Below, piece after piece: positions 12,053 to 45,200 of a stretch of DNA of 60,000 bases. The stretch lies in the NCBI RefSeq assembly GCF_026151205.1, contig NC_087083.1, forward strand, positions 3,302,536 to 3,362,535, written 5' to 3'. Numbering within the stretch: the stretch's first letter is position 1; each line of letters opens with the position of its first letter. Both the position numbers and the translations under genes were made by a program. The notes beneath the pieces are model-generated. The model saw nothing but the letters and a program-made list of their open reading frames with translations, was not told the DNA's origin and ran no database searches. This stretch comes from Bolinopsis microptera (taxonomy: Eukaryota > Ctenophora > Tentaculata > Lobata > Bolinopsidae).

Positions 12053-12907
12053 ATGATTACAGCAATTGAAATTCCTCATCTGGCTAAAGGCCAGAAAATT
12101 GCACAGTTTCAGAAGGTTTTCTTAGCGGCTACAGCAACCCTTAAACCTGAACAGCAGCTTGCATGTTTACCAGTTTATATTCACCGGACTGAGGGGGAGA
12201 AGCAGCTCGCTTTCACCGCATCAGAAGAGGCAGATGTGAAAACAGCTTTTACGTTCCTTGAAGATCTCATCGATGGCCCACCATGTCAGTTCACCGAAAG
12301 CATGACATTTTTCAACTTGCTGCCGGTTAATACTTCGATGGATGGGATACGGTCTTATTTCTTCCAACTGGACGAGTTAGCCAGGCGTGCTAAGATCCCA
12401 TCTGATGTCTTCATCATGCGGTTTCTAACAAACATACCCGGTGGGAAGAAGCTGTTTGAGTGTAAGAAAGATAAAATTAAAAGCGAACTAGATGCTGCCG
12501 GGGTAGCCAGCTTTTTCAAAGACTGTATGGAAAAGCTTCAAAAGAATTCAGCAAGTTCAGAGGCTTCGACTAGTGAAACATTTGCATTTCCGGTAGAGCA
12601 AGAAGAGCAGGTACCTAAATGGGCTCGAGAGTTACTGAAGGAGGTGGATCAGCTTCGTTCAAGGTTAGAAGTGACAGATGAGGAGGATACTGAAATGTAT
12701 GCTGTCCAGTCAGATCGTAAGTTTGAAAAAAAAGACAGACCAGTATGTGATATCTGTAAGAAGACAGGTCACATTAAAGCAACATGTTATCAAAGAGTCT
12801 GTAGCTGTTGTGGTGGAAAAGGACACGATGAGGAGAGTTGCCCCTCCAGGAGAACCTCTAGGAATAAGAAGTTCCCTCCAAAGCGGAACAACCATGACAG
12901 AAGATGA
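12053..12907 (+). CDS. Gag-like protein of the LTR retrotransposon
   Basis: 284 codons, ATG at 12053. The protein has an N-terminal capsid-like helical region, an acidic EEDTEM segment near residue 220, and two CCHC zinc knuckles near the C-terminus (CDICKKTGHIKATC and CSCCGGKGHDEESC), typical of nucleocapsid. It ends in a basic RRTSRNKKFPPKRNNHDRR tail. The stop is TGA followed by CTA, and pol continues in the same frame, so a fraction of translation probably reads through to make Gag-Pol. Confidence 0.85.
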   Translation: MITAIEIPHLAKGQKIAQFQKVFLAATATLKPEQQLACLPVYIHRTEGEKQLAFTASEEADVKTAFTFLEDLIDGPPCQFTESMTFFNLLPVNTSMDGIRSYFFQLDELARRAKIPSDVFIMRFLTNIPGGKKLFECKKDKIKSELDAAGVASFFKDCMEKLQKNSASSEASTSETFAFPVEQEEQVPKWARELLKEVDQLRSRLEVTDEEDTEMYAVQSDRKFEKKDRPVCDICKKTGHIKATCYQRVCSCCGGKGHDEESCPSRRTSRNKKFPPKRNNHDRR

Positions 12908-15900
12908 CTATATGACAGCAAAGTTGAAGGGCAGATTGAGTTAGGTGAGAGCTGGCATCCTAGACAGTTTCTTGTAGACAGTGGGGCAGAAATCTCTATC
13001 ATTTCGACTAATAAAGTGCTGATTGAAAATGGGAGCAGTACTTCCGTGCAGGGGATTGGGGGTAGACAGTTGATTGGTCCGAAGAAACAATACAACATAA
13101 GATTCTCCTCTGACAAAAGCCAGAACTACAGGGTATGGCTGCACGAAACCAACCTTAGTACCAATCAAGAAATGGTTATCTTGGGTAGAGATTTCCTAAA
13201 TCAATTTTCCAGCACTGAGTTTGATTGGAAGAATTCAAAGGTTCGTTTGGGAGAGAAATGGATATTCTTTCTAAATGCTGACAAGGGAGGACATGACATT
13301 AACCCGAACTTGCCATCTGAGGCAAGAGAGAAACTCTGCAGTATTTTGGAAAGTTTCCCAGAGGTGTTTGCAAAAAATCCAAGAGCACCCAGGTGCAGTT
13401 CTGCTACCACACACGAGATAAAGAGTATCGATGACCGCCCAATTAGGAGCAAAATAAGGAGAATTCCAGCAAAATGGTCAAAGGAGATTGACACTCAGGT
13501 CACAGAAATGATAGAACATGATATCATAGAACCATCTTCCTCACCTTTCAACAGCAATCCCCTACTGGTCTCGAAGGATGACAATTCAAAACGATTTGTT
13601 GTCGATTTCAGAATGGTTAATCGTAACACGGTGCAGGATACTTACCCTTTGCCTACTGTTGAGGAGCTTGTAGATGAGGCCTTTGGGTGTACCCTCTTTT
13701 CTCAGCTGGATTTGGCAAGTGGCTACTGGACAGTGCCAATCTCTGAGAGTCATCGTAACAAAACAGCATTCAGTATACCCCGGGGAAAGTATCAGTTTAA
13801 GAGAATGCCGTTTGGATTGAAGAATGCACAGGCAACGTTTCAGAGGTGTATGGACAAGATTGTAGAGGAGTGCAAGGAAAAGGGTGCAATCGGCTTAGAT
13901 GCGTATGTTGACAACCTGATTGTGTGCTCCACATCCATGGAAGAACATATCAATACCCTTGAGATCCTGCTGCAAGTGCTGGAGAGCAACAACATGTCAC
14001 TGAGAAAGGACAAGTGTGAGTTTGCGTACCAAGAGATCCAATTTTTAGGATTCAGGATAGATGGGAAAACCCTGAAACCAGGAACCAAAAACATGGCTAA
14101 GATTAAAGAATTCCCGGCTCCCACTACAAGGAAAGAGCTACAAAGCTTCTTGGGCTTAGCCAATTACAATCGCAGATTTATTGATGGGTACTCTGTGATA
14201 TGTTCCCCGTTGAATCGCCTAACATCGTCAAAGGTCCCGTTTGTTTGGACAAGTCAAGAACAAGCTGCATTTAACAAGTTAAAGACCACCTTTCATGCTG
14301 CTCTTTCGCTGTTCATACCAGATTGGTCTAAGCCATTTGTGATAAGAACAGACGCCTCTAAGATTGCAGTGGGGAGTGTGCTTGGGCAGTATGATGGGGA
14401 TGGTTCGTTCAAACCCATTGGTTATCACTCCGAGACCCTTAACCAGAAGAATACAAAGAACTGGTCTGCTACAGAGCGAGAACTTTATGGTATCATAAGT
14501 GCTAGCAGAAAATGGAAAGCTTTTTGCTATGAAAAGATCACGTTCTATTCGGATCATGAGCCACTGAGGAACATTCATAGACAGAAAGATCCCAGAGGGA
14601 AAATCGGCCGTTGGATATTAGAGTTGGAAAATCTTGATTACTGCATCAAGTACCTGAAGGGAGCGGACAACCAGGAAGCAGATTACTTGAGCAGAATAAT
14701 GGGGAGTGATGCCCCATCAGAAGACCCTTCAGTGTTTGTGTTAGGGGAGAATCTGCTCCGAGAGGCTCAGATGAGAGACAAAGATATTGCTGAAGCAATA
14801 GAAACACTCCGTCAGGACAAGATTGTGGATAAAGGTTTATTCAGGAAATTCTTGAACCTGAAAGTCTCTAATAACCTACTATGCAAAGGCTCCCGAGTCA
14901 TTGTACCTCAGGGGATTGCCCCAAAGATCATCCAAGAGTACCACGGACAAGGCCACCCAGGAATCGATAATACCTGCCTGATGCTATCTGAAAGGTTCTA
15001 TTGGAGAGGTATGAGGAAACAAGTGGAGTCCTTTGTTTCCAACTGTAGAACATGCACACAGTGCAAACATGGACCTAAGCCTAAAGCACCAGTGCAGGAT
15101 CATAGAGAGGTTGAGAAGATCTTTGAGATGATTTCTATGGATCTAGCATCCATGCCGGTGTCCAGGAGAGGTAACGGAAGCTTTCTTTTGGTGACAGATA
15201 TATTCACCAAGCTGATGACAGCAATAGCTTTACCCAATGCACGGGCTGAGACAGTCGTGGACGCATTATGGTGCAGATGGTTCAGCTACTATGGGCTACC
15301 TAAATTACTTCAATCAGATCAGGGAAGTAATGTCGATGGCACCAAAGTTAGACAACTATGTGAAGAATTTGCAATCAAAAAGCTCCGATCTTCTGCATAT
15401 CATCCAGCTGGTAATGGCAGTGCAGAAAGAGCTATTGGGTCCCTCAAAACAATTTTGCGATCTATGTGTCTATCTAGAGGCATCCCTATTACTCAATGGG
15501 ATGAGCTCCTGCCAGAAGCGATATTGATGTTTAATAACACTCAAAACAAATCTTCGAAATTCTCTCCTTTCGAGGCTGCTTACGGAGTGTCAGCAAACTT
15601 GCCAATCGACAATAGGTTGGGTGTCAATCAAAAAGAAGCTCAAGACACACGGTTGGTTAGGCAAAACATCCCTCTCAACAAGCAGGAGTCTCGACTAAGC
15701 TATCAGAAACAGGCTAACAAGACTACTAACGTCAACGAATACCAGGTCGGGGACTGGGTGCTTTTAAAAAGAAACCATGGTGAATATCCCAAGATGAATC
15801 CAATATGGGATGAAATTTTCGAGATCTCCAAGAAGATTGGAAAATCATGCTGGGGAATTGTAAACTTCGTTTCCGGCAAATCCAAGGTAGTTCATCACGA

Positions 15901-16207
15901 CCAGATTCAGCCTGCAGGCAAGAAGCAGGATGCCTCTATGGTTATGGGTAGCTCAGTTCCGGTACAAAACCCTCAGGAACCAGCAGGAAAAGTTTATGTT
16001 GATAACAGTCTCCCTCAGCATAACTTACCACTGATAGATCGGCAACAATTTGCGAACAATGTTTTCAACATGCCAACGAGTGCAGTATTTGCCCCATCAG
16101 CTCCACAGCCGGCACCATCATCCCCACCTACAGAACCCTCAACAACTACAACCACCAGATCAGGGAGGGTAGTCAGACCCCCAACTAGACTAATCAACCA
16201 GTTATAG
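12908..16207 (+). CDS. Pol polyprotein (protease, RT, RNase H, integrase)
   Basis: Same frame as gag, directly after its TGA, with no ATG at its start. Order: aspartic protease (FLVDSGAEISII at 12971-13006; WLHE..LGRDFL near 13190), reverse transcriptase (PSSSPFNSNPLLVSKDD; FSQLDLASGYW; RMPFGLKNAQATFQ; YVDN at about 13900), RNase H (IRTDASKIAVGSVLGQ; SDHEPL), integrase zinc region (HGQGHPG...CRTC..C) and a core starting SMDLASM. The integrase shows DIFTK, QSDQGSN and the downstream AERAIGSLK glutamate. The C-terminal end is Pro/Ser/Thr-rich, without a recognised chromodomain. The RT active-site box is YVDN instead of the usual YxDD. Otherwise it is uninterrupted for about 1,100 codons. Confidence 0.9.
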   Translation, partial: LYDSKVEGQIELGESWHPRQFLVDSGAEISIISTNKVLIENGSSTSVQGIGGRQLIGPKKQYNIRFSSDKSQNYRVWLHETNLSTNQEMVILGRDFLNQFSSTEFDWKNSKVRLGEKWIFFLNADKGGHDINPNLPSEAREKLCSILESFPEVFAKNPRAPRCSSATTHEIKSIDDRPIRSKIRRIPAKWSKEIDTQVTEMIEHDIIEPSSSPFNSNPLLVSKDDNSKRFVVDFRMVNRNTVQDTYPLPTVEELVDEAFGCTLFSQLDLASGYWTVPISESHRNKTAFSIPRGKYQFKRMPFGLKNAQATFQRCMDKIVEECKEKGAIGLDAYVDNLIVCSTSMEEHINTLEILLQVLESNNMSLRKDKCEFAYQEIQFLGFRIDGKTLKPGTKNMAKIKEFPAPTTRKELQSFLGLANYNRRFIDGYSVICSPLNRLTSSKVPFVWTSQEQAAFNKLKTTFHAALSLFIPDWSKPFVIRTDASKIAVGSVLGQYDGDGSFKPIGYHSETLNQKNTKNWSATERELYGIISASRKWKAFCYEKITFYSDHEPLRNIHRQKDPRGKIGRWILELENLDYCIKYLKGADNQEADYLSRIMGSDAPSEDPSVFVLGENLLREAQMRDKDIAEAIETLRQDKIVDKGLFRKFLNLKVSNNLLCKGSRVIVPQGIAPKIIQEYHGQGHPGIDNTCLMLSERFYWRGMRKQVESFVSNCRTCTQCKHGPKPKAPVQDHREVEKIFEMISMDLASMPVSRRGNGSFLLVTDIFTKLMTAIALPNARAETVVDALWCRWFSYYGLPKLLQSDQGSNVDGTKVRQLCEEFAIKKLRSSAYHPAGNGSAERAIGSLKTILRSMCLSRGIPITQWDELLPEAILMFNNTQNKSSKFSPFEAAYGVSANLPIDNRLGVNQKEAQDTRLVRQNIPLNKQESRLSYQKQANKTTNVNEYQVGDWVLLKRNHGEYPKMNPIWDEIFEISKKIGKSCWGIVNFVSGKSKVVHHDQIQPAGKKQDASMVMGSSVPVQNPQEPAGKVYVDNSLPQHNLPLIDRQQFANNVFNMPTSAVFAPSAPQPAPSSPPTEPSTTTTTRSGRVVRPPTRLINQL

Positions 16208-29294: not shown

Positions 29295-30268
29295 ATGGCG
29301 GAGGAAGCTAACCCGGAGACGACAGACTCCGTAAAAACGCACATCAATCATCTGTTATCAGAACTAGAGAGCAGTGAGACCCAGGTAATCATCTGTTATC
29401 AGAACTAGAGAGCAGTGAGACCCAGGTAATTGTCAGTAATTAGTCAGTAATTAGTCAGTAATCACCTGTACCGGGCCTGTACCTCATTAGTCAGTAATTG
29501 AGTTAGTTGCACAAGATAAGGGTACTGTAAACATGCTTGTTCCTCCAAAATTTAATCTAGTTAGTACTTACTACACGCACTACGAGCTTCATAACTACTT
29601 AGTTAATTAGTTAATTAGTTAATTAGTTAATTAGTTAATTACTCCACAGATCACGCCCACAGTAAGAGCAGTTTACGAGGGAGGATTTGAGAGTCAGTTT
29701 GCAGACTGTCTTACTGATAGGATCAGTAGTTTAGATAAAGATATAGAGATAATGTGCAGCTATCACTACCAGGTGGGAGAGTGTTTTTAGTTAATAACAT
29801 AATTAGTTATTTAGTTGATAACATTAGTGATCTTTTAGTTAATAATATTAGTTATCTTTTAGTTAATATTTATTAGTTATTTAGTTAATAACATTAGTTA
29901 ATTTTAGTTAATATTTATTAGTTATTTAGTTAATAACATTAGTTATCTTTTAGTTAATAACATTAGTTATTTAGTTAATAGCATTAGTAATCTTCTAGTT
30001 GATAACATTAGTTATATTTTAGTTGATATTTATTAGTTATTTGGTTAATAACATAAGTTATCTTTTAGTTAATATTTATTAGTTATTTAGTATGTCTATA
30101 AAATGTAACAGCAACAGTAACAGTGACAGTAAGGCATCATGTAGCCGGTGGGCCCGACATGATACGACATATCTTGACACGTCGGGGTTTTTCGGGATTT
30201 GTCAGGGTTTGTCGGGGTTTGTCAGGGTTTGACGGGGTTTGACGGGGTTTCCGGTTTGTCGAGCCTGG

Positions 30269-30306
<38 letters not shown>

Positions 30307-33300
30307 AGTCTCCCAACAAAAAGCCGAGACGGAGTCATCAAGCTTTACGTGGAAAAACACTATACAAGAAGGCCTCATGTAGCCGGTGGGCCCGAGGCAA
30401 AACCCCTCGACAAACCCCGACAAACCCCGTTTGTCGGGATATGTCGGGGTTTGTCGGGGTTTGTCGAGCCTGGAGGCTACATGATGCCTACTAGACCGGT
30501 TCATAAAACAAAAATGTTCTTGAATAATTACCAATATGTTCTTATCTGTTGATCCCTAGGTTCAAATACCACCAAAAAAAATTTCAAGTTCCAACTCTTC
30601 CATCTTAGTCCCGCTCCGGCCACGCCCATATTTTATTGGTTTCTTATACAGGTAAAATATCTAGAATCGGCTTTTTTAGTATGAAGGAGTAATGTTGGCT
30701 GTTTAAGATTCGTTATTCAAATATAAATGTCATAAAGGCATTTCGTTTAATGTGGGTTTTAAGTTCTGGTGATGATGAGAACCACGCCCTTTGATGACCA
30801 CGCCCATTTTAGAAAAATAAGTCATAAAAATTTCGGAAAACCGTATTTTTTGAGTTTATTTAATGGTTTGATGTTAAATGATATCAATTTTCTTCTACCT
30901 TCTCCTTGAGATAAAGTGTGTTAATACAAACCGCCCTGTCATAGAGAACACGGTAAGTTTAAACTAGTGTCAAGTAGTAATAGGTGAGCTGGTGAGTGGT
31001 GACTGTGTCAAGTGGTATTAGGTGGGTCAAATATGCTTAGTTGACACTGGTTTATGGCTCCGGATCATATAAAAAGGAAGACCATGTTTCAAGGACTATA
31101 CTACAGCCAACAACATGACTACTATCCTTGGAAAACGAAAGCAACCCCGCAGAGAAGTCCCTTGGGTTGGTACTCTCCTGGAAAAACTTTCCTTCTCAAA
31201 ACTTCCCACCAAAGGAACTGTTCTGAGAAGGCTCTTCTTTGAGCTTGAGAAGACTGCAGGTGATGGATCGTCAACACTATCCGCAGCTTGTGTTCAAGTG
31301 AAGAACGAACTAATCGAACTATGGGAATATGCTGGGTATGGCGATATCCTCAAGCACTCCCCTAACATCATTAAGGATATCAAAGCTCTACGAACCTCTC
31401 ACCAAGACCTCACTAAGGTTCCAGCAGTCAGACGACAAAAGCAGTCCTTCAAGATGAAAGAAGTGGCGTTCCTGAATTCCCTAGAGGCGCTTTTCGACAT
31501 TACAGTTAAATCCCTTCAGTCCTCTAAGCTGATTACCGATGAAGACCGCGACTTCCTTCAGAACCACTGGAAGAAGACAATCAGCTCTACGCCCGACCTC
31601 AACCTTCAGAAGAGCCTGGAAAAGAAGCTAGCAAGAGAGGAGTCCCTCAAACGATACTCCTTAGCAGAGTCCTCCACTTCTACTACTTTCCTCTCTACCT
31701 CCATGTCCTCAGACGATTCCCAACTGGACACCAGCCTTCAGGAGGAGTACACTCCTAAACGCCCCTGTGCTTCCAGAGGCACTACGATAGCAATCTCCAA
31801 ACGATTCGTAGAGAAGCTCGGTCCAGCTGCGGACAGACTGAATCTATCGTCGACACAGCTCACCGGGATCCTTGCTGCTGCTACAAACCACGGTGGAGGA
31901 GACAGCTGAGCTTGGAGGATTCGGAAAGGTAAGAGTTATTAGAATTACAGTAGTTGAACTTTGAATTACAATTGTCAATTGTGATTTAAACAATAATAAT
32001 TCAATTTTATATTAATTTCCACCATCTACAGGTCAAAAGGCTTGCAGTAATCCTCATCCAAGAAGAGCCAGATCCTTGGAATTCCTCCTACAGAAAACTC
32101 CACTGGAAGAGCAGAAGCGGAGATGGTGAAGGACTACCTCGACAGCTGGGAGGTTGCAGACAAGATCATAGCCTGCGGTTTTGATACAACATCCTCTAAT
32201 ACTGGAGTCAATAACGGGAGCTGCACCATCCTCCAGAACCTCCTTCACCTACAGCTGCTGTGGCTCGCCTGCAGACATCATATCCTGGAGTTGATAATCG
32301 GAGGGGCATTCACGACCATCTTTGGAGTGACCTCCGGGCCGGAAGTGACAACGTTCAAGATCCTGAAGATCTGTTCTTGGAACAGTCTAAACCTTGGAGA
32401 CAGACGGCTACCCGACATCCCCTCCTACTTCAAGGAAGACGTCGCGGACATCTTGGAGTACGTCAACAGCAAACTCGATCAAGAGTCTCACCTACCCCGA
32501 GGAGACTACAAGGAACTGCTGGAGCTGGTAAAGTTGATCCTTGGTGGAGATATTCAGGGCGTGGTTCTCATCATCACCAGAACTTAAAACCCACATTAAA
32601 CGAAATGCCTTTATGACATTTATATTTGAATAACGAATCTTAAACAGCCAACATTACTCCTTCATACTAAAAAAGCCGATTCTAGATATTTTACCTGTAT
32701 AAGAAACCAATAAAATATGGGCGTGGCCGGAGCGGGACTAAGATGGAAGAGTTGGAACTTGAAATTTTTTTTGGTGGTATTTGAACCTAAGGATCAACAG
32801 ATAAGAACATATTGGTAATTATTCAAGAACATTTTTGTTTTATGTACCGGTCTAATGCCTACAGTAACAGTAACAGTGACAGTAACAGTAACATTGTTGC
32901 AGGGTTTTATAGATTGTGTGAACGAGCTACTGTAACAGTAACAGTAACATTGTTGCAGGGTTTTATAAATTGTGTGAACGAGCTACTGTAACAGTAACAT
33001 TGTTGCAGGGTTTTATAGATTGTGTGAACGAGCTACTGTAACAGTAACAGTAACATTGTTGCAGGGTTTTATAGATTGTGTGAACGAGCTACTGTAACAG
33101 TAACAGTAACATTGTTGCAGGGTTTTATAGATTGTGTTAACGAGTTACTGTAACAGTAACAGTAACATTGTTGCAGGGTTTTCTAGATTGTGTGAACGAG
33201 CTACTGTAACAGTAACATTGTTGCAGGGTTTTATAGATTGTGTGAACGAGCTACTGTAACAGTAACATTGTTGCAGGGTTTTATAGATTGTGTGAACGAG

Positions 33301-36300
33301 CTACTGTAACAGTAACATTGTTGCAGGGTTTTATAGATTGTGTGAACGAGCTACTGTAACAGTAACAGTAACATTGTTGCAGGGTTTTATAGATTGTGTG
33401 AACGAGCTACAGTAACAGTAACAGTAACATTGTTGCAGGGTTTTATAGATTGTGTGAACGAGCTATTGTAACAGTAACAGTAACATTGTTGCAGGGTTTT
33501 ATAGATTGTGTGAACGAGCTACTGTAACAGTAACAGTAACATTGTTGCAGGGTTTTATAGATTGTGTGAACGAGCTACTGTAACAGTAACAGTAACATTG
33601 TTGCAGGGTTTTATAGATTGTGTTAACGAGCTACTGTAACAGTAACAGTAACATTGTTGCAGGGTTTTATAGATTGTGTGAACGAGCTACTGTAACAGTA
33701 ACAGTAACATTGTTGCAGGGTTTTATAGATTGTGTGAACGAGCTACAGTAACAGTAACATTGTTGCAGGGTTTTATAGATTGTGTTAACGAGCTACAGTA
33801 ACAGTAACAGTAACAGTAACAGTAACAGTAACAGTAACATTGTTGCAGGGTTTTATAGATTGTGTTAACGAGCTACTGAAAGTACAGAACATGGTTAAAG
33901 GACTACAATCTGATATTTGTAACGTTGACACCATGTTGTGTTCTAACAGCGCCGAACTTATAGACTCCCACGAGTCTCTAATATCACAGCGACTAGAACT
34001 CAAGAACATGGCCTCCACTATACAGGTATATTATAGAACATGGCCTCCACTATACAGGTATATTATAGAACATGGCCTCCACTATACAGGTATATTATAG
34101 AACATGGCCTCCACTATACAGGTATATTATAGAACATGGCCTCTACTATACAGGTATATTATAGAACATGGCCTCCACTATACAGGTATATTATAGAACA
34201 TGGCCTCCACTATACAGGTATATCATAGAACATGGCCTCCACTATACAGGTATATTATAGAACATGGCCTCCACTATACAGGTATATTATAGAACATGGC
34301 CTCCACTATACAGGTATATTATAGAACATGGCCTCTACTATACAGGTATATTATAGAACATGGCCTCCACTATACAGGTATATTATAGAACATGGCCTCC
34401 ACTATACAGGTATATGATAGAACATGGCCTCCACTATACAGGCTAGGTATATTATAGAACATGGCCTCCACTATACAGGTATATTATAGAACATGGCCTC
34501 CACTATACAGGTACATTATAGAACATGGCCTCCACTATACAGGTATATTATAGAACATGGCCTCCACTATACAGGTATGTTATAGAACATGGCCTCCACT
34601 ATACAGGTATATTATAGAACATGGCCTCCACTATACAGGTATATTATAGAACATGGCCTCCACTATACAGGTATATTATAGAACATGACCTCCACTATAC
34701 AGGTATATTATAGAACATGGCCTCTACTATACAGGTATATTATAGAACATGGCCTCCACTATACAGGTATATTATAGAACATGGCCTCCACTATACAGGT
34801 ATATGATAGAACATGGCCTCCACTATACAGGCTAGGTATATTATAGAACATGGCCTCCACTATACAGGTATATTATAGAACATGGCCTCCACTATACAGG
34901 TACATTATAGAACATGGCCTCCACTATACAGGTATATTATAGAACATGGCCTCCACTATACAGGTATGTTATAGAACATGGCCTCCACTATACAGGTATA
35001 TTATAGAACATGGCCTCCACTATACAGGTATATTATAGAACATGGCCTCTACTATACAGGTACATTATAGAACATGGCCTCCACTATACAGGTATATTAT
35101 AGAACATGGCCTCCACTATACAGGTACATTATAGAACATGGCCTCCACTATACAGGTATATTATAGAACATGGCCTCCACTATACAGGTATATTATAGAA
35201 CATGGCCTCCACTATACAGGTATATTATAGAACATGGCCTCCACTATACAGGTATATTATAGAACATGGCCTCCACTATACAGGTACATTATAGAACATG
35301 GCCTCCACTATACAGGTATACTATAGAACAAGGCCTCCACTATACAGGTATATTATAGAACATGGCCTCCACTATACAGGTATATAATTGTCACATTGAT
35401 GGTATATTAATATAGAACATGGCCTCCACTATACAGGTATATTATAGAACATGGCCTCCACTATACAGGTACATTATAGAACATGGCCTCCACTATACAG
35501 GTATATTATAGAACATGGCCTCCACTATACAGGTATATTATAGAACATGGCCTCCACTATACAGGTATATTATAGAACATGGCCTCCACTATACAGGTAT
35601 ATTATAGAACATGGCCTCTACTATACAGGTATATTATAGAACATGGCCTCCACTATACAGGTATATTATAGAACATGGCCTCCACTATACAGGTATATCA
35701 TAGAACATGGCCTCCACTATACAGGTATATTATAGAACATGGCCTCCACTATACAGGTATATTATAGAACATGGCCTCCACTATACAGGTATATTATAGA
35801 ACATGGCCTCTACTATACAGGTATATTATAGAACATGGCCTCCACTATACAGGTATATCATAGAACATGGCCTCCACTATACAGGCTAGGTATATTATAG
35901 AACATGGCCTCCACTATACAGGTATATTATAGAACATGGCCTCCACTATACAGGTACATTATAGAACATGGCCTCCACTATACAGGTATATTATAGAACA
36001 TGGCCTCCACTATACAGGTATGTTATAGAACATGGCCTCCACTATACAGGTATATTATAGAACATGGCCTCCACTATACAGGTATATTATAGAACATGGC
36101 CTCTACTATACAGGTACATTATAGAACATGGCCTCCACTAAACAGGTATATTATAGAACATGGCCTCCACTATACAGGTACATTATAGAACATGGCCTCC
36201 ACTATACAGGTATATTATAGAACATGGCCTCCACTATACCTTACAAGACATTTTTGTGGCGGACCAATTTGCGACGACCGAAATTTTGGCGGTCCGAAAA

Positions 36301-39300
36301 TATGGCGAAATTGAACAAAAACCGTCACATTTCGGACGTCACAGAAAATAAGGGTATTTTTCATCATTTTGTTTTCCGACACAAAGGAAATTCAAAATTT
36401 TCTAAAAATCGGTAAAATCATGTTTAAACAAAATGAAACTTATAAATCGATTTCTTCATCTTCCTCTAAGGGGTCCGGCTCGACTCTTTCAGTTTCACTT
36501 ATTGAGTTTGATATTAAATTGTTTATCTTGACTTAGTCTCTTATAAGACGTTTATGTTAGCACATAAATGTAATTTATTGTAAATTTAAAACGTATTACT
36601 TGACATTAAATTCATCATGGAATATTGTGTTTATTTGTCCCACCATCATATCACTAACTTTTCAAGAACAAAATGAATCGATGAAGCCACAATTATTGGA
36701 ATAAGCTAAAAAATAATGCGACGGATTCTATTACGACGACCGAAATTTTGGCGGTCCGAAAATATGGCGAAATTTCGGGAAAACCGTCGCATTTCGTACG
36801 TTATGAAAATGTCTTGTAAGGTACAGGTATATTATAGAACATGGCCTCTACTATACAGGTACATTATAGAACATGGCCTCCACTATACAGGTATATTATA
36901 GAACATGGCCTACATTATAGAACATGGCCTCCACTATACAGGTACATTATAGAACATGGCCTCCACTATACAGGTATATAATTGTCACATTGATGGTATA
37001 TTATAGAACATGGCCTCCACTATACAGGTATATTATAGAACATGGCCTCCACTATACAGGTATATTATAGAACATGGCCTCCACTATACAGGTACATTAT
37101 AGAACATGGCCTCCACTATACAGGTATATTATAGAACATGGCCTCCACTATACAGGTATATTATAGAACATGGCCTCCACTATACAGGTATATTATAGAA
37201 CATGGCCTCCACTATACAGGTATATTGGGGGGTACCAATGGCATAAATGGCATAATGGAGAATTGGCCAATAAAAATTTCCATTTATGCCATAAAACGTA
37301 TGCCATTTATGCCATTTTTGATATAATACATTTCTAGTTTATTTATTTGTCATATGAATCTTTAACGATCATTCCAAGCGTTATAAAGCATGAAACATGT
37401 CTCTTATTCAAGTACTAATAATAATTTGCGAATTTAAAGTCAAATATGAAGACCTAATTTCATGGCATAAATGGAGAATTGGCCAATAAAAATTTCCATT
37501 TATGCCATAAAACGTATGCCATTTATGCCATTTTATGCCATTGGTACCCCCCCGGTATATTATAGAACATGGCCTCCACTATACAGGTACATTATAGAAC
37601 ATGGCCTCCACTATACAGGTATATTATAGAACATGGCCTCCACTATACAGGTATATTATAGAACACGGCCTCCACTATACAGGTATATTATAGAACATGG
37701 CCTCCACTATACAGGTATATTATAGAACATGGCCTCCACTATACAGGTATATTATAGAACATGGCTTCCACTATACAGGTATATTATAGAACATGGCCTC
37801 CACTATACAGGTATATTATAGAACATGGCCTCCACTATACAGGTATATTATAGAACATGGCCTCCACTATACAGGTATATTATAGAACATGGCCTCCACT
37901 ATACAGGTATATTATAGAACATGGCCTCCACTATACAGGTACATTATAGAACATGGCCTCCACTATACAGGTATATAATACTATAATAGAACATGGCCTC
38001 CACATTGATGAGGTTAGAAGATGAAATAGATATAAATTTTAGTTGTGAAGTTTTATTGACTCTCATGTAAACAACACTACTCCTAAGTAAAGTGTGACAA
38101 CTAACTAACAACTAACTAATTACAACTAAATAACTGCAGGCTATAAAGCTGTGTATACCTGTATTGGAGATGTACCAGAAGTTAAAGGAAGAAATGCACA
38201 ATAAGAATTACTACAGCGCTATAAAGATATTAGGACACTTGGAGCACACTTACCTTCCCCCTATCTCCTCCTACAGTTTCGCTAGCATCATGTCACAGCA
38301 GATACCCAAAACTAGACAAACCATCAAGGAGATATCCAGATGTGATCTTAAAGACTTCTTAAAAACTATCAGGGAGAAATCTCAAGATATTGGACTGAAC
38401 GCTATGTGGCAAAGTCATCAGACCATGAACACTGACATTCCGATAGGTAATTAATCAATTAGCTAATTAATTAATCAACTAATTATTCGATTATCTGATT
38501 AATTAATCAACTAATTAATTAACTAGATTATGTACAGCTCTAACCATGTCATAAAACAGCTGTTAATTTATAACTTATCCTACATTGTGTTTCCCTTCCT
38601 TTTCCAAATGCAATATAAATTATCTCATTTAACACAGCACCAAGAAGTTCAGAAATAGTTTATTTATTTTAATTTTATATTGTTTATTTATTTTAATTTT
38701 ATATATTTCAATTTTCTATTATTGGTGTATAAAATAACTTAACTTATTTATAGTTTATTTATTTTAATTTTCTATTATTGGTGTATAAAATAACTTAACT
38801 TATTTATAGTTTATTTATTTTAATTTTCTATTATTGGTGTATAAAATAACTTAACTTATTTATAGTTTATATATTTTAATTTTCTGTTAATGCTGAATAA
38901 AATAACTTAACTTATTTATAGTTTATTTATTTTAATTTTCTGTTAATGCTGTATAAAATAACTTAACTTATTTATAGTTTATTTATTTTAATTTTCTGTT
39001 AATGCTGAATAAAATAACTTATTTCTCCCACTAGATCACATCCTGGGGAGAAGACCTAAGAGTATAGAGGACGGGCCACTAGACTTCCTAAACTTCGCTC
39101 CCATTTACCGGTGCCTGCATATCTACTCCATCATTGGAGAAAAGGAGGACTTTGCCAAGGAGTACCACGCGGACAGAAAGAAACAAGCTGATCTTACTTT
39201 TAAATTTGTGCCAAAGTTGGGGGACTCCTCCCAAGACTCAGACTCTTATAATGCGGAGTATTTCTGTAAAGTTGTGGGCTTCTTTGTTATAGAGAACACA

Positions 39301-41533
39301 CTGTTACACACTACGCAAGGACTTGTTACTCACACTTCTATTGATGAACTATGGAACCTCTTCTTGTCTTGTCTAGGTAATAATTAATAATTAAGTTAGG
39401 GATATTTTAATAACTTTATGTTATTTAGATATCAGGTCCTCTACTTAGTACTTAGTTTACTAATTACCTATTTAACTAGTTTACTAATTATCTATAATTT
39501 GACAAGTTTACTAATTAACCAATTATCTAGTTAACCAATTATATAGTTAACTAATATTCCTTCCTCCTACAGGTAACCTAGACCAGCTGCTTCTGAACAA
39601 GGATGACCAGCCTCAACAACTACTAGACCTCAAGCTGCTTCTAGTTCTCTTCTGTCAGACTCTGGGCGGGTACGAGCTAAACGTTACCAAGTTATATAAG
39701 CTCCTTATAAACCTGTACCAGAAGTACTGTGACAGTCTTCAGTCACTCTGGAAAACAAAGTTCAAGGAAGTTTTCGGTAAGGAAAACTTAAATACCACAA
39801 ATTTTCACTTCATACTACTATTGTGTAACACTTCGCTGTTGTGTCACTAATTAATCAGCTAATCAATTAATTAGCTAACTAATTAATTAATTAGTTAACT
39901 AATTGCCATTTGTCCCTCAGGTAAAGACAACTACTCTCCTCTCACAGTAGACTCAGATGTACAACTCCAACAGTTAATGGGTTGTGCTTATCAAGCACTA
40001 GATAGGACTGACATGAAGTTCCCAGTACATCTACCTTTCTCTAAACTAGTACCTGAAATATTCATACTAATGGAGGAGTACATAGAGGCGTCGTTACAAT
40101 TCGCAACTCATCTCGACCTGAGCCAGACTGAAGTAGACGATCTAGTTAGGAAGTCTACAAACGAGCTTCTCACTAAAACACTGAACGATTGTCTGATAGA
40201 TCTAATAAAAGAGAAGAACCTGGTACTATCCCAGATAGTACAAGTCAGCATCAATACTTCCTTCTTACAGCGCTACTCTCACTCTATGGAAACGTTCGTA
40301 TCCTCTAAAACAGGATGCACTGTGTCTAGTACTCAGGCTAAAGATTTGTACGGACTGAAGATGTTTGATAATGTTAAGGAGGAGGCTAAGAGACAGATAC
40401 ACGTCAAGGTACGGTAGAGGGGTTAAATAGAGGGGTGAAATAGAGGGGTTAAATAGAGAGGTGAAATAGAGAGGTGAAATAGAGGGGTGAAATAGAGGGG
40501 TGAAATAGAGGGGTGAAATAGAGGGGTTAAATAGAGGGGTCAAATAGAGGGGTCAAATAGAGTGGTTAAATAGAGGGGTCAAATAGAGGGGTCAAATAGA
40601 GGGGTGAAATAGCAGCTCCTATTCAGATGGGTGAAATAGCAGCTACTATTCAGATGGGTGAAATAGAGTGGTTAAATAGAGGGGTGAAATAGCAGCTACT
40701 ATTCAGATGGGTGAAATAGAGGGGTGAAATAGCAGCTACTATTCAGATGGGTGAAATAGCAGCTACTATTCAACTAATAGACTAATTAACTAATAGCCTA
40801 ATTAACTGATACATTAATCAACTTATAATACATTAATCAACTTATACATTAAATTAACACATGCCTTTCTCTCCAGCTGACAGAGAAGATAGACGAATTC
40901 TTTGAACTGTCTCGCTACAACTGGATGACTAGCGAAGTAAGAGAGTACCCTAGCGACTACATAACCGACATGTTGACCTACCTCAACAACAAGTTCAGAA
41001 CCTTCACTCAACTAGAACAGAGCGTAGCTTGTGGAGCCTGTGAGGAAGCTGGTAAACACATCGCTAACAAACTGTTGGAGATATTTCTAGATCCCACCAT
41101 AACACAGATGTCACGTGTAGCACTGGATATTCTAGATCAGGACGTGATCGCTTACGAGGGGTTCGCTCTGGATGAGCCGGTGAAAGGTGTAAAGAATATA
41201 AACCTGCTGATCCCAATCCAGACACTCCGCAATGTTATAAACATGATAAAACAGTCCGACTATGACAAGTATATAGCTGAGTTTAACCCGAGTAGTAGGA
41301 GCTCTAGTAACATAGCACCTGAGGTGCTGGCTAGAGTACTAGAGAGGTTCCTGGATAAAGATAGCAAGAAGTTCTCTTTCAAGAGTTTCAGTATGAACAA
41401 GAATGAGAAGGAGATGAACCAGCTGCTGGAGGCTGTTATAAAGAAACTGAGAACACTGAACACCGGGGGAAGCGGGTCCAGCACTCCTACTATGCTCGCT
41501 AGGAAGCTTTCTAGGAGCAATCTCAACTTCTGA
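29295..41533 (+). CDS. EXOC6: Exocyst complex component 6 (Sec15)
   Basis: Eight exons: 29295-29384, 29650-29772, 33849-34025, 38140-38446, 39035-39376, 39573-39776, 39921-40408 and 40877-41533. They join in phase to 795 residues (human about 804). Landmarks: MAEEANPET start, VRAVYEGGFESQF, GFIDCVNELLKVQ, CIPVLEMYQKLKEEM, EISRCDLKDFLKTIREKS, FAPIYRCLHIYSIIGEKEDF, VVGFFVIENTLLHTTQGLVT, DELWNLFLSCL, LPFSKLVPEIF, KIDEFFELSRYNWM and a Sec15 C-terminal helical domain ending RKLSRSNLNF. Sec15 links the exocyst to Rab11/Sec4-type GTPases for secretory-vesicle tethering. Introns 2 and 3 are unusually long (4.1 kb each) because of transposons and splice-site minisatellites. The symbol could equally be EXOC6B. 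Confidence 0.95.
29344..29425 (+). repeat. 41-bp duplication of EXOC6 exon-1 end with its donor
   Basis: The block ending GCAGTGAGACCCAG|GTAAT occurs twice, donor at 29385 and again at 29426. Only the first donor keeps the frame into exon 2, because 41 is not a multiple of three. Confidence 0.92.
29788..30095 (+). repeat. TTAGTTAATAACATTAGTTAT minisatellite in EXOC6 intron 2
   Basis: Degenerate units of TTAGTTAAT(A)ACATTAG with an ATTTATTAG variant, beginning soon after the exon-2 donor. Confidence 0.85.
30132..30490. mobile_element. Foldback element with GTCGGGGTTT units and a poly-T tract
   Basis: The ends are AGGCATCATGTAGCC and its complement GGCTACATGATGCCT. Inside are tandem GTCGGGGTTT/GACAAACCCC units in both orientations, about 33 T at 30273-30305, and a second left-end copy (CTCATGTAGCCGGTGGGCCCGA) at 30374. 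ACAGTA stands on both outer sides once the hAT element is removed. The hAT element landed in its right tip. Confidence 0.65.
31115..31909 (+). pseudogene. hAT transposon protein, N-terminal part
   Basis: 264 codons from ATG 31115. Begins MTTILGKRKQPRREVPWVGT; central charged helices; C-terminal GTTIAISKRFVEKLGPAADR then LNLSSTQLTGILAAATNHGG. The closing segment matches my memory of the region ahead of the catalytic core in a hAT-like family widespread in arthropods and hydra. A donor-like GGTAAG follows at about 31929, and an acceptor-like CTACAG lies at about 32031. Sequence linking it to the next frame appears to be missing, so the copy is probably internally deleted. Confidence 0.6.
32051..32587 (+). 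pseudogene. hAT transposon protein, catalytic-region fragment
   Basis: Open from 32051 (after a stop at 32048). It reads QILGIPPTENSTGRAEAEM, then ACGFDTTSSNTGVNNGSC and WLACRHHILELIIGGAF. The FDTT.SNTG block and the ACRHH motif are signatures of this hAT-like group; the Cys/His pair fits the hAT CxxH motif and the Asp of FDTT one catalytic acid. The frame runs on into the right TIR and stops there, so the final catalytic Glu region is absent. Non-functional as a complete transposase. Confidence 0.65.
32863..33880 (+). repeat. Acceptor-site minisatellite: 18 copies of the EXOC6 exon-3 start with its 3' splice site
   Basis: Units of 48-62 bp contain (ACAGTA)n, then CATTGTTGCAG|GGTTTTAT, then AGATTGTGTGAACGAGCTAC. 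The part after the AG is the first 30 nt or so of exon 3. I count 18 occurrences of TTGTTGCAGG, the last being the true acceptor at 33847-33848. Copies vary by a few bases (for example GTGTTAACG). Confidence 0.95.
36239..36821. mobile_element. 583-bp MITE with TA duplication inside the donor minisatellite
   Basis: The ends are CCTTACAAGACATTTT and its complement, with TA on each side. Internally it carries two direct copies of a CGACGACCGAAATTTTGGCG-containing block (about 36274 and 36735). Confidence 0.85.
37227..37553. mobile_element. 327-bp hairpin MITE with 8-bp GGTATATT duplication inside the donor minisatellite
   Basis: The ends are GGGGGGTACCAATGGCATAA and its complement. GGTATATT occurs immediately on both sides. 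Inner segments repeat GGCATAAATGG and GCCATTTATGCC in both orientations. Confidence 0.8.
38660..39015 (+). repeat. 56-bp AT-rich minisatellite in EXOC6 intron 4
   Basis: Units contain AGTTTATTTATTTTAATTTT, CTRTTAWTGSTGWATAAAAT and AACTTAACTTATTTAT. About six copies. Confidence 0.9.
40409..40770 (+). repeat. (AGAGGGGTGAAAT) minisatellite at the start of EXOC6 intron 7
   Basis: Starts a few bases after the exon-7 donor. 13-bp units give way to a longer AGCAGCTACTATTCAGATGG-containing unit. Confidence 0.92.
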
Positions 41534-42285: not shown

Positions 42286-45200
42286 ATGGCACAAGACCTG
42301 ACTCCAAATGGAATTCTGAAATTCTTTAATCAGTCCATCAATACAGACAGTTACAAACCCACCGTTCAGATAAACGCTATAAAGAAATGTGGGTCAGGTT
42401 AGTTGGTTTTATTTTACTTATTTAGGAGTGAATTTTACATTAACGTTACATGTTTTAAATGTTACTTTCATGTTATATTAACTTAGTATACTTAGTATAC
42501 TTGCAGTTAACTTAGTTAGTTATCTTTATTCTTTAACTAGAATATTTTCAGGAAGTGGAGCTAATAAAAACAAGCTGTTAGTTAGTGATGGAACTAACTT
42601 CACCACAATGCTTTCTGTTGGGGACGAAATAGACAAAGTGGTTAGTTGTTTTACTAATGTGTTGAACTATTTTAACATCTTAACGACGACCGTGAAGCGA
42701 AGGTTATGTGTATATATTATGTGTATATATTATGTGTATATGTATATTATGTGTAACTACTCTACTCAGATAGCTGACGACACGTTGAGGAAGAATGCAG
42801 TAGTAAAGGTAGAGCGTTACAACGTGACTAACTCTAACAACAAACACTTCGTACTTATACTAGAGGTCTCCATCTTATCTTACCCTGAACAGAAGATAGG
42901 TGAGTTGTAATGATGTCACTTAAATAACTTAAATAAAAACACTTTGTACTAATACTACTAATTATAACTCCAGATATATATAATCTAGTTTGCATTATCC
43001 CCATTATCAGATGGTTTATCATTACGCCCCCCGGCCCCACTGCACCACTGCACTCCCCCCCCCCACCCCCGGCCCAACTGCACCCCCACTCCCCCACCCC
43101 CGGCCCCACTTGCACTCCCCCACTGCACCCCCCGGCCCCACTCCCCAACTGCACCCCCCCCCCCCCCGGCCCCACTCCCCCACCCCCGGCCCCCCATCAT
43201 TACATGTAACTTATAATATCCCACTCAGGTAACCCTGTAAAGCTATCAGATGACCAGATACAAGCCGAGGTTAACAAGACCCCCACCCCTTCTACTTCAG
43301 TACCCAGCGCAGTCTCTACTTTCAATTCTGGTTAGTTAACTTTATTTGGTTAGTTTAGTGAACTTAATATATATAATATATAAGTTACTTTGATTAACTT
43401 GAGTTGTTTATTTGAGGGATTTGATTATATTTAGTTGGTTATAATAACCCTCCCACAGGAGGCATGGCAGGAGCTGCTCCTTCAGGCACACCTGGTAATA
43501 TATATCCGATACAGAGTCTCAACCCCTATCAGAACAAGTGGACTATCAAGGCTAGGTAACAAATTGATATCTTGATAAATAGATAATAATAATGATACTT
43601 TAATGTAGATAATGACTATAGCTATATTTATATAAGATAACACAGTGTAACTACAGGGTAACCAAGAAGAGTGATATTAGAACGTGGTCTAACGCACGGG
43701 GAGAAGGGAAACTGTTCAGTCTGGAGCTGATGGACGAGAGTGGAGAGATTAGGTGTACAGGTGAATATACTAACCAACCAGAGAGCTGTATTGTAGTCAC
43801 GAGACAAATACTAACCAATCAGAGAGCTGTATTGTTGTCACGAGACAAATACTAACCAATCAGAGAGCTGTATTGTAGTCACGAGACAAATACTAACCAA
43901 TCAGAGAGCTGTATTGTAGTCACGAGACAAATACTAACCAATCAGAGAGCTGTATTGTAGTCACGAGACAAATAATGACCAATCAGAGAGCTGTATTGTT
44001 GTCACGAGGCACAAAATAAGCAAACTGCAAAGACGATAATGTTTTGTTTATTATTTTATTTTGTCCCGATCTGCACCTTGGTAATATCTATTTGTTCAGG
44101 TTTCACAGACGCAGTAGATAAGTTTTACAACGTAGTAGAACAAGGTCAAGTGTACTACGTTTCCCGCTGCTCTCTCAAGACCGCTAATAAACAGTACACT
44201 GCTATAAAGAACGACTACGAGATGACGATAAATAGTGACACTACTATTGTTAAGTGCGAGGGTCAGTACTCACTTATAACTATAACTATTGTTAAGTTAC
44301 TAATAAAGGAATAAGAGAACTAAAAACTAGTCCTCTTTTACACTACTAGTTACCATAGTTACAATACTAGTTACCATAGTTACACTACTAGTTACCATAG
44401 TTACACTACTAGTTACCATATGCTTAGTTACACTACTAGTTACCATAGTTACACTACTAGTAACTATAGTTACACTACTAGTTACCATAGTAACACTACT
44501 AGTTACCATAGTAACACTACTAGTTACCATAGTTACAATACTAGTTACCATAGTTACACTACTAGTTACCATAGTTACACTACTAGTTACCATATGCTTA
44601 GTTACACTACTAGTTACCATAGTTACACTACTAGTTACCATAGTTACACTACTAGTTACCATATGCTTAGTTACACTACTAGTTACCATGGTCACGTAAC
44701 TACTTCTCTTTTAGACGGAGATGCAGTTCCGCAGATAAAAATGGAGTTTACTCAGATATCAGACCTGGAGAGATGCGAGAATAACAGTTTTGTGGATATA
44801 ATGGGAATAGCTACTGATATTGGAGACGTTCAGTCTATTACTGCTAGGTTAGATATCAGAAATTTCAAATATTTTTAATGTTTATATTCTCATTCCTCGT
44901 GTATATATTGACATAATTCTGTTCAATATTCAATAAAACAACGAAAGTTCTTTTTAACGAATGGTAAATATTCAAAGACTAGCGGGAGCACCCCGGTTAA
45001 CTCTTTCTGACCATTTCTGCTGATGACCCGACCCCCCATTGTTACTTGCCTTAGTAACCATGCAATGGTTACTTGCCTTAGTAACCATGGTTACTTATTA
45101 ACTTTCTTGTATTTAACAGCTGTCTAATTATTTCTCTAAATGACAGGGCGTCAGGCAAGCAACTCACTAAAAGAGAAGTAAAGTTGCAAGACAAATCAGG

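What the first reader, a model, noticed from the sequence alone, without database searches (positions are those of the whole stretch)
34004..37990. EXOC6 exon 3 ends in about 90-100 tandem copies of its own exon end plus donor splice site
Each 32-bp unit contains the last 21 coding bases of exon 3 and the GTATAT donor. Intron 3 therefore opens with a long row of near-identical 5' splice sites. Splicing from the first donor keeps the frame; a unit of 32 nt means inclusion of one or two copies shifts it. Each unit carries AG|GT, so one unit is also excisable as a perfect mini-intron. I know of no described array of this size seeded exactly on a functional splice junction.
Basis: seen in the sequence. 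Interest (0 to 1): 0.85.

Follow-up and report, generated by a model that had tools for sequence, protein, structure and literature searches.

The report
Splice-junction minisatellites bracketing EXOC6 exon 3
In what is probably a comb jelly, one exon of an ordinary secretion gene sits between two long rows of copies of its own splice sites; this is a very large case of a known kind of repeat ("mirage" minisatellites), another gene in the same genome has an even longer one, and it raises the testable question of how splicing picks the one usable pair.

Summary
EXOC6 exon 3 ends at 34025, followed by 93 copies of a 32-bp unit (34003-37980): the last 23 coding bases plus donor GTATAT. 92 AG|GT donors remain; two insertions interrupt the array. 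(1) The exon's acceptor lies in a second array: 18 acceptors, 32903-33849. Only the innermost pair (acceptor 18, donor 1) gives full-length protein; 17 of 17 other acceptors and 91 of 91 other donors truncate it. (2) Exon 1's donor is duplicated (41 bp x2). (3) It is not unique: one of 15 arbitrary 10-kb stretches of this genome holds a Sushi-domain gene with three donor-spanning arrays, one of 71-bp units spanning 11.9 kb (about 160 copies); a Rab5-like gene has a 34-bp x2 case.
Repeats spanning exon-intron boundaries are known as amphioxus "mirages"; repeat-borne donors are known in human IFI6, and AG|GT unit excision in human UBC. Best reading: junction-seeded minisatellites in a repeat-rich, probably Bolinopsis, genome, tolerated because the innermost pair is used and because donor-side units are formally self-excisable GT..AG segments. 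No transcripts were available; how the right donor is chosen remains open.

The parts
29295..29384 (+). EXOC6 exon 1 (start codon to first donor)
   Evidence: Open frame, GT donor
29346..29430 (+). 41-bp x2 duplication spanning the exon 1 donor (..GACCCAG|GTAAT); use of the second donor gives a stop after 37 aa
   Evidence: TRF 100% matches; self-repeat test; translation
29650..29772 (+). EXOC6 exon 2
   Evidence: its 3' part lies inside the PF20651 match
32879..33878 (+). Acceptor array: 18 copies of TTGTTGCAG|GGTTTT.., spacing 50, 56 or once 80 bp; acceptors 32903 to 33849
   Evidence: TRF; listings
33849..34025 (+). EXOC6 exon 3 (177 nt, phase 0 at both ends), between the innermost acceptor and the first donor
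   Evidence: Only this pair gives 795 aa; inside the full-length PF20651 match
34003..37980 (+). Donor array: 93 units AGAACATGGCCTCCACTATACAG|GTATATTAT, 92 with AG|GT
36239..36821 (+). Insertion in the array: 583 bp, 16-bp exact terminal inverted repeats, TA on both sides (mariner-like by recall)
37227..37553 (+). Insertion in the array: about 326 bp, 21-bp terminal inverted repeats, GGTATATT on both sides (hAT-like by recall); end uncertain by 1 base
38140..38446 (+). EXOC6 exon 4
38698..39021 (+). Intron 4 array, 56 bp x5.8, ending 13 nt before exon 5; does not span the junction
   Evidence: TRF; sequence
39035..41533 (+). EXOC6 exons 5-8 (39035-39376, 39573-39776, 39921-40408, 40877-41533)

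Best explanation
The arrays are junction-seeded minisatellites of the kind called 'mirages' in amphioxus. A short segment covering the end of exon 3 and the start of intron 3 was tandemly duplicated, then grew by unit and block duplication. The same happened separately at the exon's acceptor and at exon 1's donor. Shown: seeding on true junctions; block repeats inside the array; insertions inside it; only the innermost acceptor-donor pair encodes full-length protein; other genes of the genome carry the same structure. Inferred: the arrays persist because they are nearly neutral. Exon definition (nearest acceptor and donor around the exon body) usually selects the productive pair. On the donor side every retained run of units is itself a GT..AG segment, so a second splice from donor 1 would restore the normal mRNA. 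No adaptive function is needed.
For: Units span a real coding junction. Growth history: exact direct repeats of 381, 361 and 281 bp at offsets 1475, 389 and 1054, a recurring order of unit variants, and two units (35357, 36951) holding a piece also found in the array's 3' flank. Two insertions with terminal inverted repeats lie inside. The 64-nt unit search lists 43 matches, all at this locus on C12 (a lower bound), against origin as a dispersed repeat. Same structure elsewhere: Sushi gene on C13, donor arrays of 71 bp (11.9-kb span), 56 bp x3.9 and 65 bp x2, and a Rab5-like gene, 34 bp x2. Self-repeat gradient by one rule: exon interior 0 of 400 positions, junctions 3 of 45, intron interior 150, 89 and 100 of 250 in EXOC6, NAA35 and RPA1. 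91 of 91 retained donor segments begin GT and end AG. Precedent of undisturbed splicing: amphioxus Adh3 and globin (PMC3087553).
Against: No transcript shows that donor 1 is used. Published work on competing donors does not guarantee that the exon-proximal (intron-distal) site wins; factors such as SRSF1 can favour the intron-proximal one (PMC5585400 passages). EXOC6 has 3 of 14 junctions affected against 1 of 115 junctions or approximate edges in the other genes tested, so the gene may be special, though it was chosen because of the array. In the EXOC6 array the intronic part varies more than the exonic part (0.061 vs 0.007 per site), which could mean constraint, although block duplication inflates shared variants and the C13 array shows little difference (0.016 vs 0.013). 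Excision of a single 32-nt unit would be below the usual animal intron size (recalled).
Confidence: 0.75

Rival explanations
1. Regulatory rheostat: the donor and acceptor arrays divert a copy-number-dependent share of EXOC6 transcripts into truncated, decay-prone isoforms, tuning dosage.
For: All 17 other acceptors and 91 other donors truncate the protein, with the stop after 81 aa (acceptors) or, for 89 of 91 donors, 154 aa; 92 donors are intact. An intronic VNTR affecting splicing is the subject of a paper on human ABCA7 (PMC5954066, title and start of abstract in the listing only).
Against: The same structures occur in unrelated genes (Sushi, Rab5-like), as expected of a mutational by-product. 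No conservation data. For UBC tandem splicing the authors found no tissue-specific or feedback regulation (abstract).
Confidence: 0.08
2. The array helps splicing or transcript integrity: a row of U1 binding sites marks the exon end or protects a long intron from premature polyadenylation.
For: An AG|GT donor is kept in 92 of 93 EXOC6 units and 72 of the 74 C13 units examined.
Against: Recent expansion alone keeps copies alike. In the C13 array the donor GT shows 0 substitutions, but so do most other positions. The second copy in the Rab5-like gene has lost its GT.
Confidence: 0.05
3. Assembly artefact or wrong copy number: long-read assembly error inflated a short repeat.
For: If the genome is the published B. 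microptera, it was built with wtdbg 2.4 and polished with Illumina reads (PMC10232365 passage). The amphioxus authors found a mirage aberrantly assembled in a draft genome.
Against: Ordered unit variants, block repeats and two different insertions inside the array are hard to make by assembly error. The exact copy number remains uncertain.
Confidence: 0.07
4. The true exon 3 end lies elsewhere and the 32-bp unit is an ordinary intronic repeat.
For: None found.
Against: PF20651 matches residues 51-219 to profile positions 2-170, equal lengths and hence no net insertion or loss across the exon 2/3/4 joins; only donor 1 keeps the frame open. The alignment itself was not printed.
Confidence: 0.02

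Closest known systems
Amphioxus 'mirage' minisatellites (Adh3; globins BflGb6, BflGb9)
   Same: Minisatellite-like tandem duplications spanning intron-exon boundaries, on acceptor or donor side; many units carry AG/GT; unequal copy number (PMC3087553 abstract and passages).
   Different: There 6 and 3 units of 150-160 bp in the two haplotypes of BflGb6 and a duplicate of 157 bp in BflGb9; Adh3 units are 10-72 bp (its copy number was not seen). Here 93 and 18 units on the two sides of one exon, and about 160 in another gene; a different phylum if the species guess is right. Undisturbed splicing was reported there, not tested here.
Human IFI6 (6-16) minisatellite with multiple splice donors (Turri 1995)
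   Same: A minisatellite at an exon end supplies several donors.
   Different: Two downstream repeat units are used, giving three mRNAs (one sentence in PMC4526556). A unit of 12 nt and 26 copies are recalled; Turri 1995 is not held.
Dual-specific splice sites in tandem repeats (human UBC, VCX3A)
   Same: AG|GT at unit edges, so whole units can be spliced out as introns.
   Different: In UBC the units are coding and isoforms carry variable unit numbers (PMC10809524 abstract and passages). Here extra units are non-coding and retention truncates the protein.
[quoted passage not shown]
   Same: Duplicating a segment with AGGT yields a GT..AG piece that can be removed without changing the protein (PMC4974935 passages).
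   Different: Here the duplicated segment already contained a working exon-intron junction, so no new intron position arises.

Membership tests
Mirage (exon-intron boundary) minisatellite | Tandem units include both coding exon end and intron sequence of a real junction | tested here: met
   donor; acceptor
Mirage (exon-intron boundary) minisatellite | Units carry splice signals | tested here: met
   92 AG|GT in 93 units; 18 TTGTTGCAG acceptors
Mirage (exon-intron boundary) minisatellite | Growth and homogenisation typical of minisatellites | tested here: met
   Block repeats of 281-381 bp and recurring variant order
Mirage (exon-intron boundary) minisatellite | Length instability between alleles or individuals | not testable with these tools
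   No second EXOC6 copy in the assembly. The C13 array spans 11.9 kb in one gene copy and at most 6.7 kb in a second copy whose flanks are 91-95% identical, probably a paralogue.
Mirage (exon-intron boundary) minisatellite | Does not interfere with regular splicing | not testable with these tools
   No transcripts; only donor 1 with acceptor 18 encodes the conserved protein
Dual-specific splice site array | AG|GT at unit edges so that any run of units is GT..AG | tested here: met
   91 of 91 retained segments
Dual-specific splice site array | The same site observed used as donor and as acceptor | not testable with these tools
   Needs RNA reads
Rogers-type intron gain | New intron at a position that was exonic | tested here: not met
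   The duplicated junction is the exon 3 / intron 3 boundary itself; the gene model needs no extra intron within exon 3

The most novel reading that the evidence does not exclude
The donor array is a self-correcting splicing track. The pre-mRNA is spliced from any of 92 equivalent donors, and mis-spliced products are re-spliced from donor 1 to the AG left at the new exon junction, so that all paths converge on one mRNA. Such a track would let junction arrays grow to kilobases genome-wide and would make donor-side arrays commoner and longer than acceptor-side ones.
Probability: 0.18. Interest if true: 0.8.

Novelty: new member of a known kind. Interest (0 to 1): 0.55.

Why it matters
It is a natural experiment on splice-site choice: 92 near-identical donors and 18 near-identical acceptors compete around one 177-nt exon, and only the innermost pair encodes the protein. 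Counting junctions in long-read cDNA would show directly whether proximity to the exon decides, whether units are removed stepwise, and how much mis-splicing a conserved gene tolerates. It also suggests that boundary minisatellites, described in amphioxus, may be frequent and much larger in another animal lineage, which bears on how introns grow and on how gene annotation can fail there.

Tried and rejected
Origin as a dispersed repeat or mobile element: rejected, since the unit search lists only this locus (the tool says such counts are lower bounds). Second allele of EXOC6 for a copy-number comparison: none listed in the assembly. Species by mitochondrial COX1: no match, uninformative. Constraint on donor bases: inconclusive; EXOC6 shows more variation in the intronic part, C13 hardly any difference. 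The per-position table for C13 is out of register because of fuzzy unit starts; I replaced it by the aligned count. misread five minus-strand loci (L016, L018, L024, L034, L042); the two with internal edges (L034, L042) were redone, 0 flagged. The first junction test (at least 6 nt on each side) found 2 of 45 junctions and missed the exon 1 duplication, which has only 5 matching nt on the intron side; with 4 nt it is 3 of 45. The controls were repeated with 4 nt.

Rows left out of counts: the RPA1 exon 10 acceptor was not placed (25 of 26 junctions used). One search reports 152 Ras-family matches; I chose 55 by hand, leaving out the intronless cluster on C1 and weaker or unlisted ones, and 53 of the 55 lay in fetched loci. 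Ras exon edges are model-match ends, good to about 20 nt, not exact junctions. For the 15 arbitrary stretches, 92 array-edge open frames from 50 arrays were read by eye and only peptides from L015 were then tested with Pfam, so '1 of 15' is a lower bound.

Weak points of the C13 comparison: the joined exon at the 71-bp array scores 19.0 bits, just under the 20.7 cut-off, and its first half alone has no match. At the 56-bp array the two exons join in frame with GT and AG, but the 38-aa joined peptide has no Pfam match. At the 65-bp array they join in frame with Sushi repeats on both sides. The 11.9-kb span rests on the match list, which has one gap of 0.4 kb (C13:1497183-1497597); C13:1493601-1500000 was not read. 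In the second gene copy the listed matches cover only C13:1687599-1687988 and 1691568-1694312; most of the 3.6 kb between them was not read, so 6.7 kb is an upper limit.
Full report
WHAT IS THERE. The window lies in G000, 264.65 Mb in 232 contigs, 13 of which are above 15 Mb. With 13 chromosomes and 265 Mb, this fits the ctenophore Bolinopsis microptera (13 chromosomes, 265 Mb, 346 scaffolds in Table 1 of PMC11797021, passage; 13 scaffolds holding 97.23% of bases in PMC10232365, passage; here the 13 hold 97.5% by my own sum of the lengths). The scaffold number differs, so the species is an inference. EXOC6 has eight coding exons (29295-41533, + strand) that join to a 795-aa frame matching PF20651 over 2-170/170 and PF04091 over 1-348/348, and the Sec15 chains 2a2f and 5yfp.

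DONOR ARRAY. Exon 3 ends TATACAG|GTATAT at 34025. The last 23 coding bases and 9 intron bases form a 32-bp unit; 93 copies start between 34003 and 37948. 92 AG|GT sites survive. The commonest unit (51 of 93) is identical to the coding copy. Exact direct repeats of 281-381 bp at offsets 389, 1054 and 1475 and a recurring order of variants show growth by blocks of units. Two units hold 22 and 25 extra bases that include CACATTGATG, also present just past the array's 3' end, as expected if the array grew from the exon 3 / intron 3 boundary. Two elements with terminal inverted repeats (16 bp with TA on both sides; 21 bp with GGTATATT on both sides) lie inside the array.

ACCEPTOR ARRAY AND EXON 1, MISSED AT FIRST. 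Upstream of exon 3, 18 copies of TTGTTGCAG|GGTTTT.. lie with acceptors between 32903 and 33849, spaced 50, 56 or once 80 bp. The last is the coding one and follows the longest ACAGTA run (33795-33839), which may strengthen it (inference). Exon 1's donor lies in a 41-bp x2 perfect duplication (29346-29430). An intron 4 array (38698-39021) and the intron 7 array (40415-40732) come within 13 and 6 nt of splice sites without spanning them.

CONSEQUENCES. Using any of the 17 upstream acceptors stops translation after 81 aa; any of the 91 later donors gives a stop after 142, 154 or 172 aa (1, 89 and 1 of 91); exon 1's second donor stops after 37 aa (three shifted donors were tested 5 nt upstream of their GT). 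So, with single changes tested, only the innermost pair makes the protein. For every later donor the retained segment begins GT and ends AG (91 of 91), so a second splice from donor 1 would restore the normal mRNA. The acceptor side lacks this property: the exon 2 / unit seam reads CAG|GGTTTT, without GT at the seam.

HOW GENERAL. I tested whether a junction lies inside a local direct repeat (score 18 or more, at least 4 nt on each side). EXOC6: 3 of 14 junctions; NAA35: 0 of 6; RPA1: 0 of 25. With the same rule, exon interior: 0 of 400 positions; intron interior 150 of 250 (EXOC6), 89 of 250 (NAA35), 100 of 250 (RPA1). With a stricter 6-nt rule the junction count is 2 of 45. Ras-family genes elsewhere: 84 approximate internal exon edges in 53 matches; 3 edges flagged, of which 2 are purely intronic and 1 spans a donor (a PF00071 gene, Rab5-like by recall; 34 bp x2, second copy GAG|AT, donor lost). 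Repeats are thus common in these introns, rare at junctions and not seen inside these exons, which is what tolerance set by splicing predicts.

A LONGER CASE. Among 15 arbitrary 10-kb stretches, L015 on C13 holds a Sushi-domain gene (PF00084 in five of seven peptides from L015) with donor-spanning arrays of 71 bp x74 within the locus, 56 bp x3.9 and 65 bp x2. The 71-bp array runs on to C13:1493296, a span of 11.9 kb; the match list has one 0.4-kb gap, so about 160 copies. Joining its exon to the next gives a Sushi match over 6-56/56 (19.0 bits, cut-off 20.7), and use of donor 2 instead gives a stop. The exon pairs at the 56-bp and 65-bp arrays also join in frame with GT and AG; Pfam confirms Sushi repeats around the second join but finds nothing in the short peptide across the first. 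A second gene copy 190 kb away, flanks 91-95% identical, carries the same 71-bp array at the same place, within a span of at most 6.7 kb of which the listed matches cover about 3.1 kb, so array length differs between copies. The EXOC6 array is therefore one of a class.

COMPARISON WITH WHAT IS KNOWN. [quoted passage not shown] PMC4526556 (one sentence) says human IFI6 uses two downstream repeat units as donors, citing Turri 1995 (not held). PMC10809524 (abstract and passages) reports AG|GT dual-specific sites used in the tandem repeats of human UBC. PMC4974935 (passages) gives the Rogers AGGT model. PMC2812944 (passages) reports human repeats at exon-intron boundaries. Ten searches ran; I saw no ctenophore case or array of this size among the titles listed, but some lists were capped (8 of 10, 15 of 24, 10 of 96 and 10 of 69 papers shown) and most subscription papers are not in that library, so this is weak evidence of absence.

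HOW IT MOST LIKELY WORKS. Shown: seeding, block growth, insertions, coding consequences, recurrence in other genes. Inferred: productive splicing through the innermost pair by exon definition, possible re-splicing on the donor side, near neutrality. In print, competing donors can be steered either way by splicing factors (PMC5585400, passages), so choice of donor 1 is the real open question. Of the boundary arrays found, counting the two C13 gene copies as one, six are donor-side and one acceptor-side; this fits the excision argument but the sample is small. Their unit lengths (32, 34, 41, 50/56, 56, 65, 71) include no multiple of 3, as for sequence that is never meant to be translated; again a small sample.

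VERDICT. Observation confirmed and extended; a new and very large member of a known kind, not a unique object. Interest is moderate to high because the locus makes splice-site choice directly countable with long-read cDNA.

Noticed in passing
L015 1-9100 with L061 (C13:1493296-1509100), - strand: Sushi-domain gene with three donor-spanning arrays, one of 71-bp units over an 11.9-kb span, and an acceptor-side intronic array 47 bp x4 at L015 6164-6353.
   Followed up: yes
G000 C13:1687599-1694312 (L062, L063): Second copy of that gene, flanks 91-95% identical, with the same 71-bp array; in the flank it also has a row of 15-bp TAGCATTGACATGTC repeats where the first copy has none.
   Followed up: partly
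L055, about 2370-2430: Rab5-like gene (name by recall; PF00071) with a 34-bp donor-spanning duplication; the second copy has lost its GT donor.
   Followed up: yes
window 30100-32860: Intron 2 of EXOC6 holds what looks like an inserted element with long inverted ends (near 30502 and 32845) and two ORFs (31115-31909, 32123-32587), flanked on both sides by CAGTAACAGTGACAGTAA-like sequence resembling the acceptor array's repeat.
   Followed up: no
window 12053-16207: ORFs resembling gag and pol of a Ty3-type retroelement (by recall of motifs; not searched).
   Followed up: no
window 43767-44008 and 40415-40732: Arrays in RPA1 and EXOC6 introns that start 6 nt after the exon end without including exon sequence.
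   Followed up: partly
window 39453-39555: Part of EXOC6 intron 5 matches other sites on C7, C9, C11, C12 and C13 at 72-86% identity: a dispersed repeat family.
   Followed up: no
L001 1059-10000: A 29-bp satellite-like array filling almost the whole stretch (about 309 copies).
   Followed up: no
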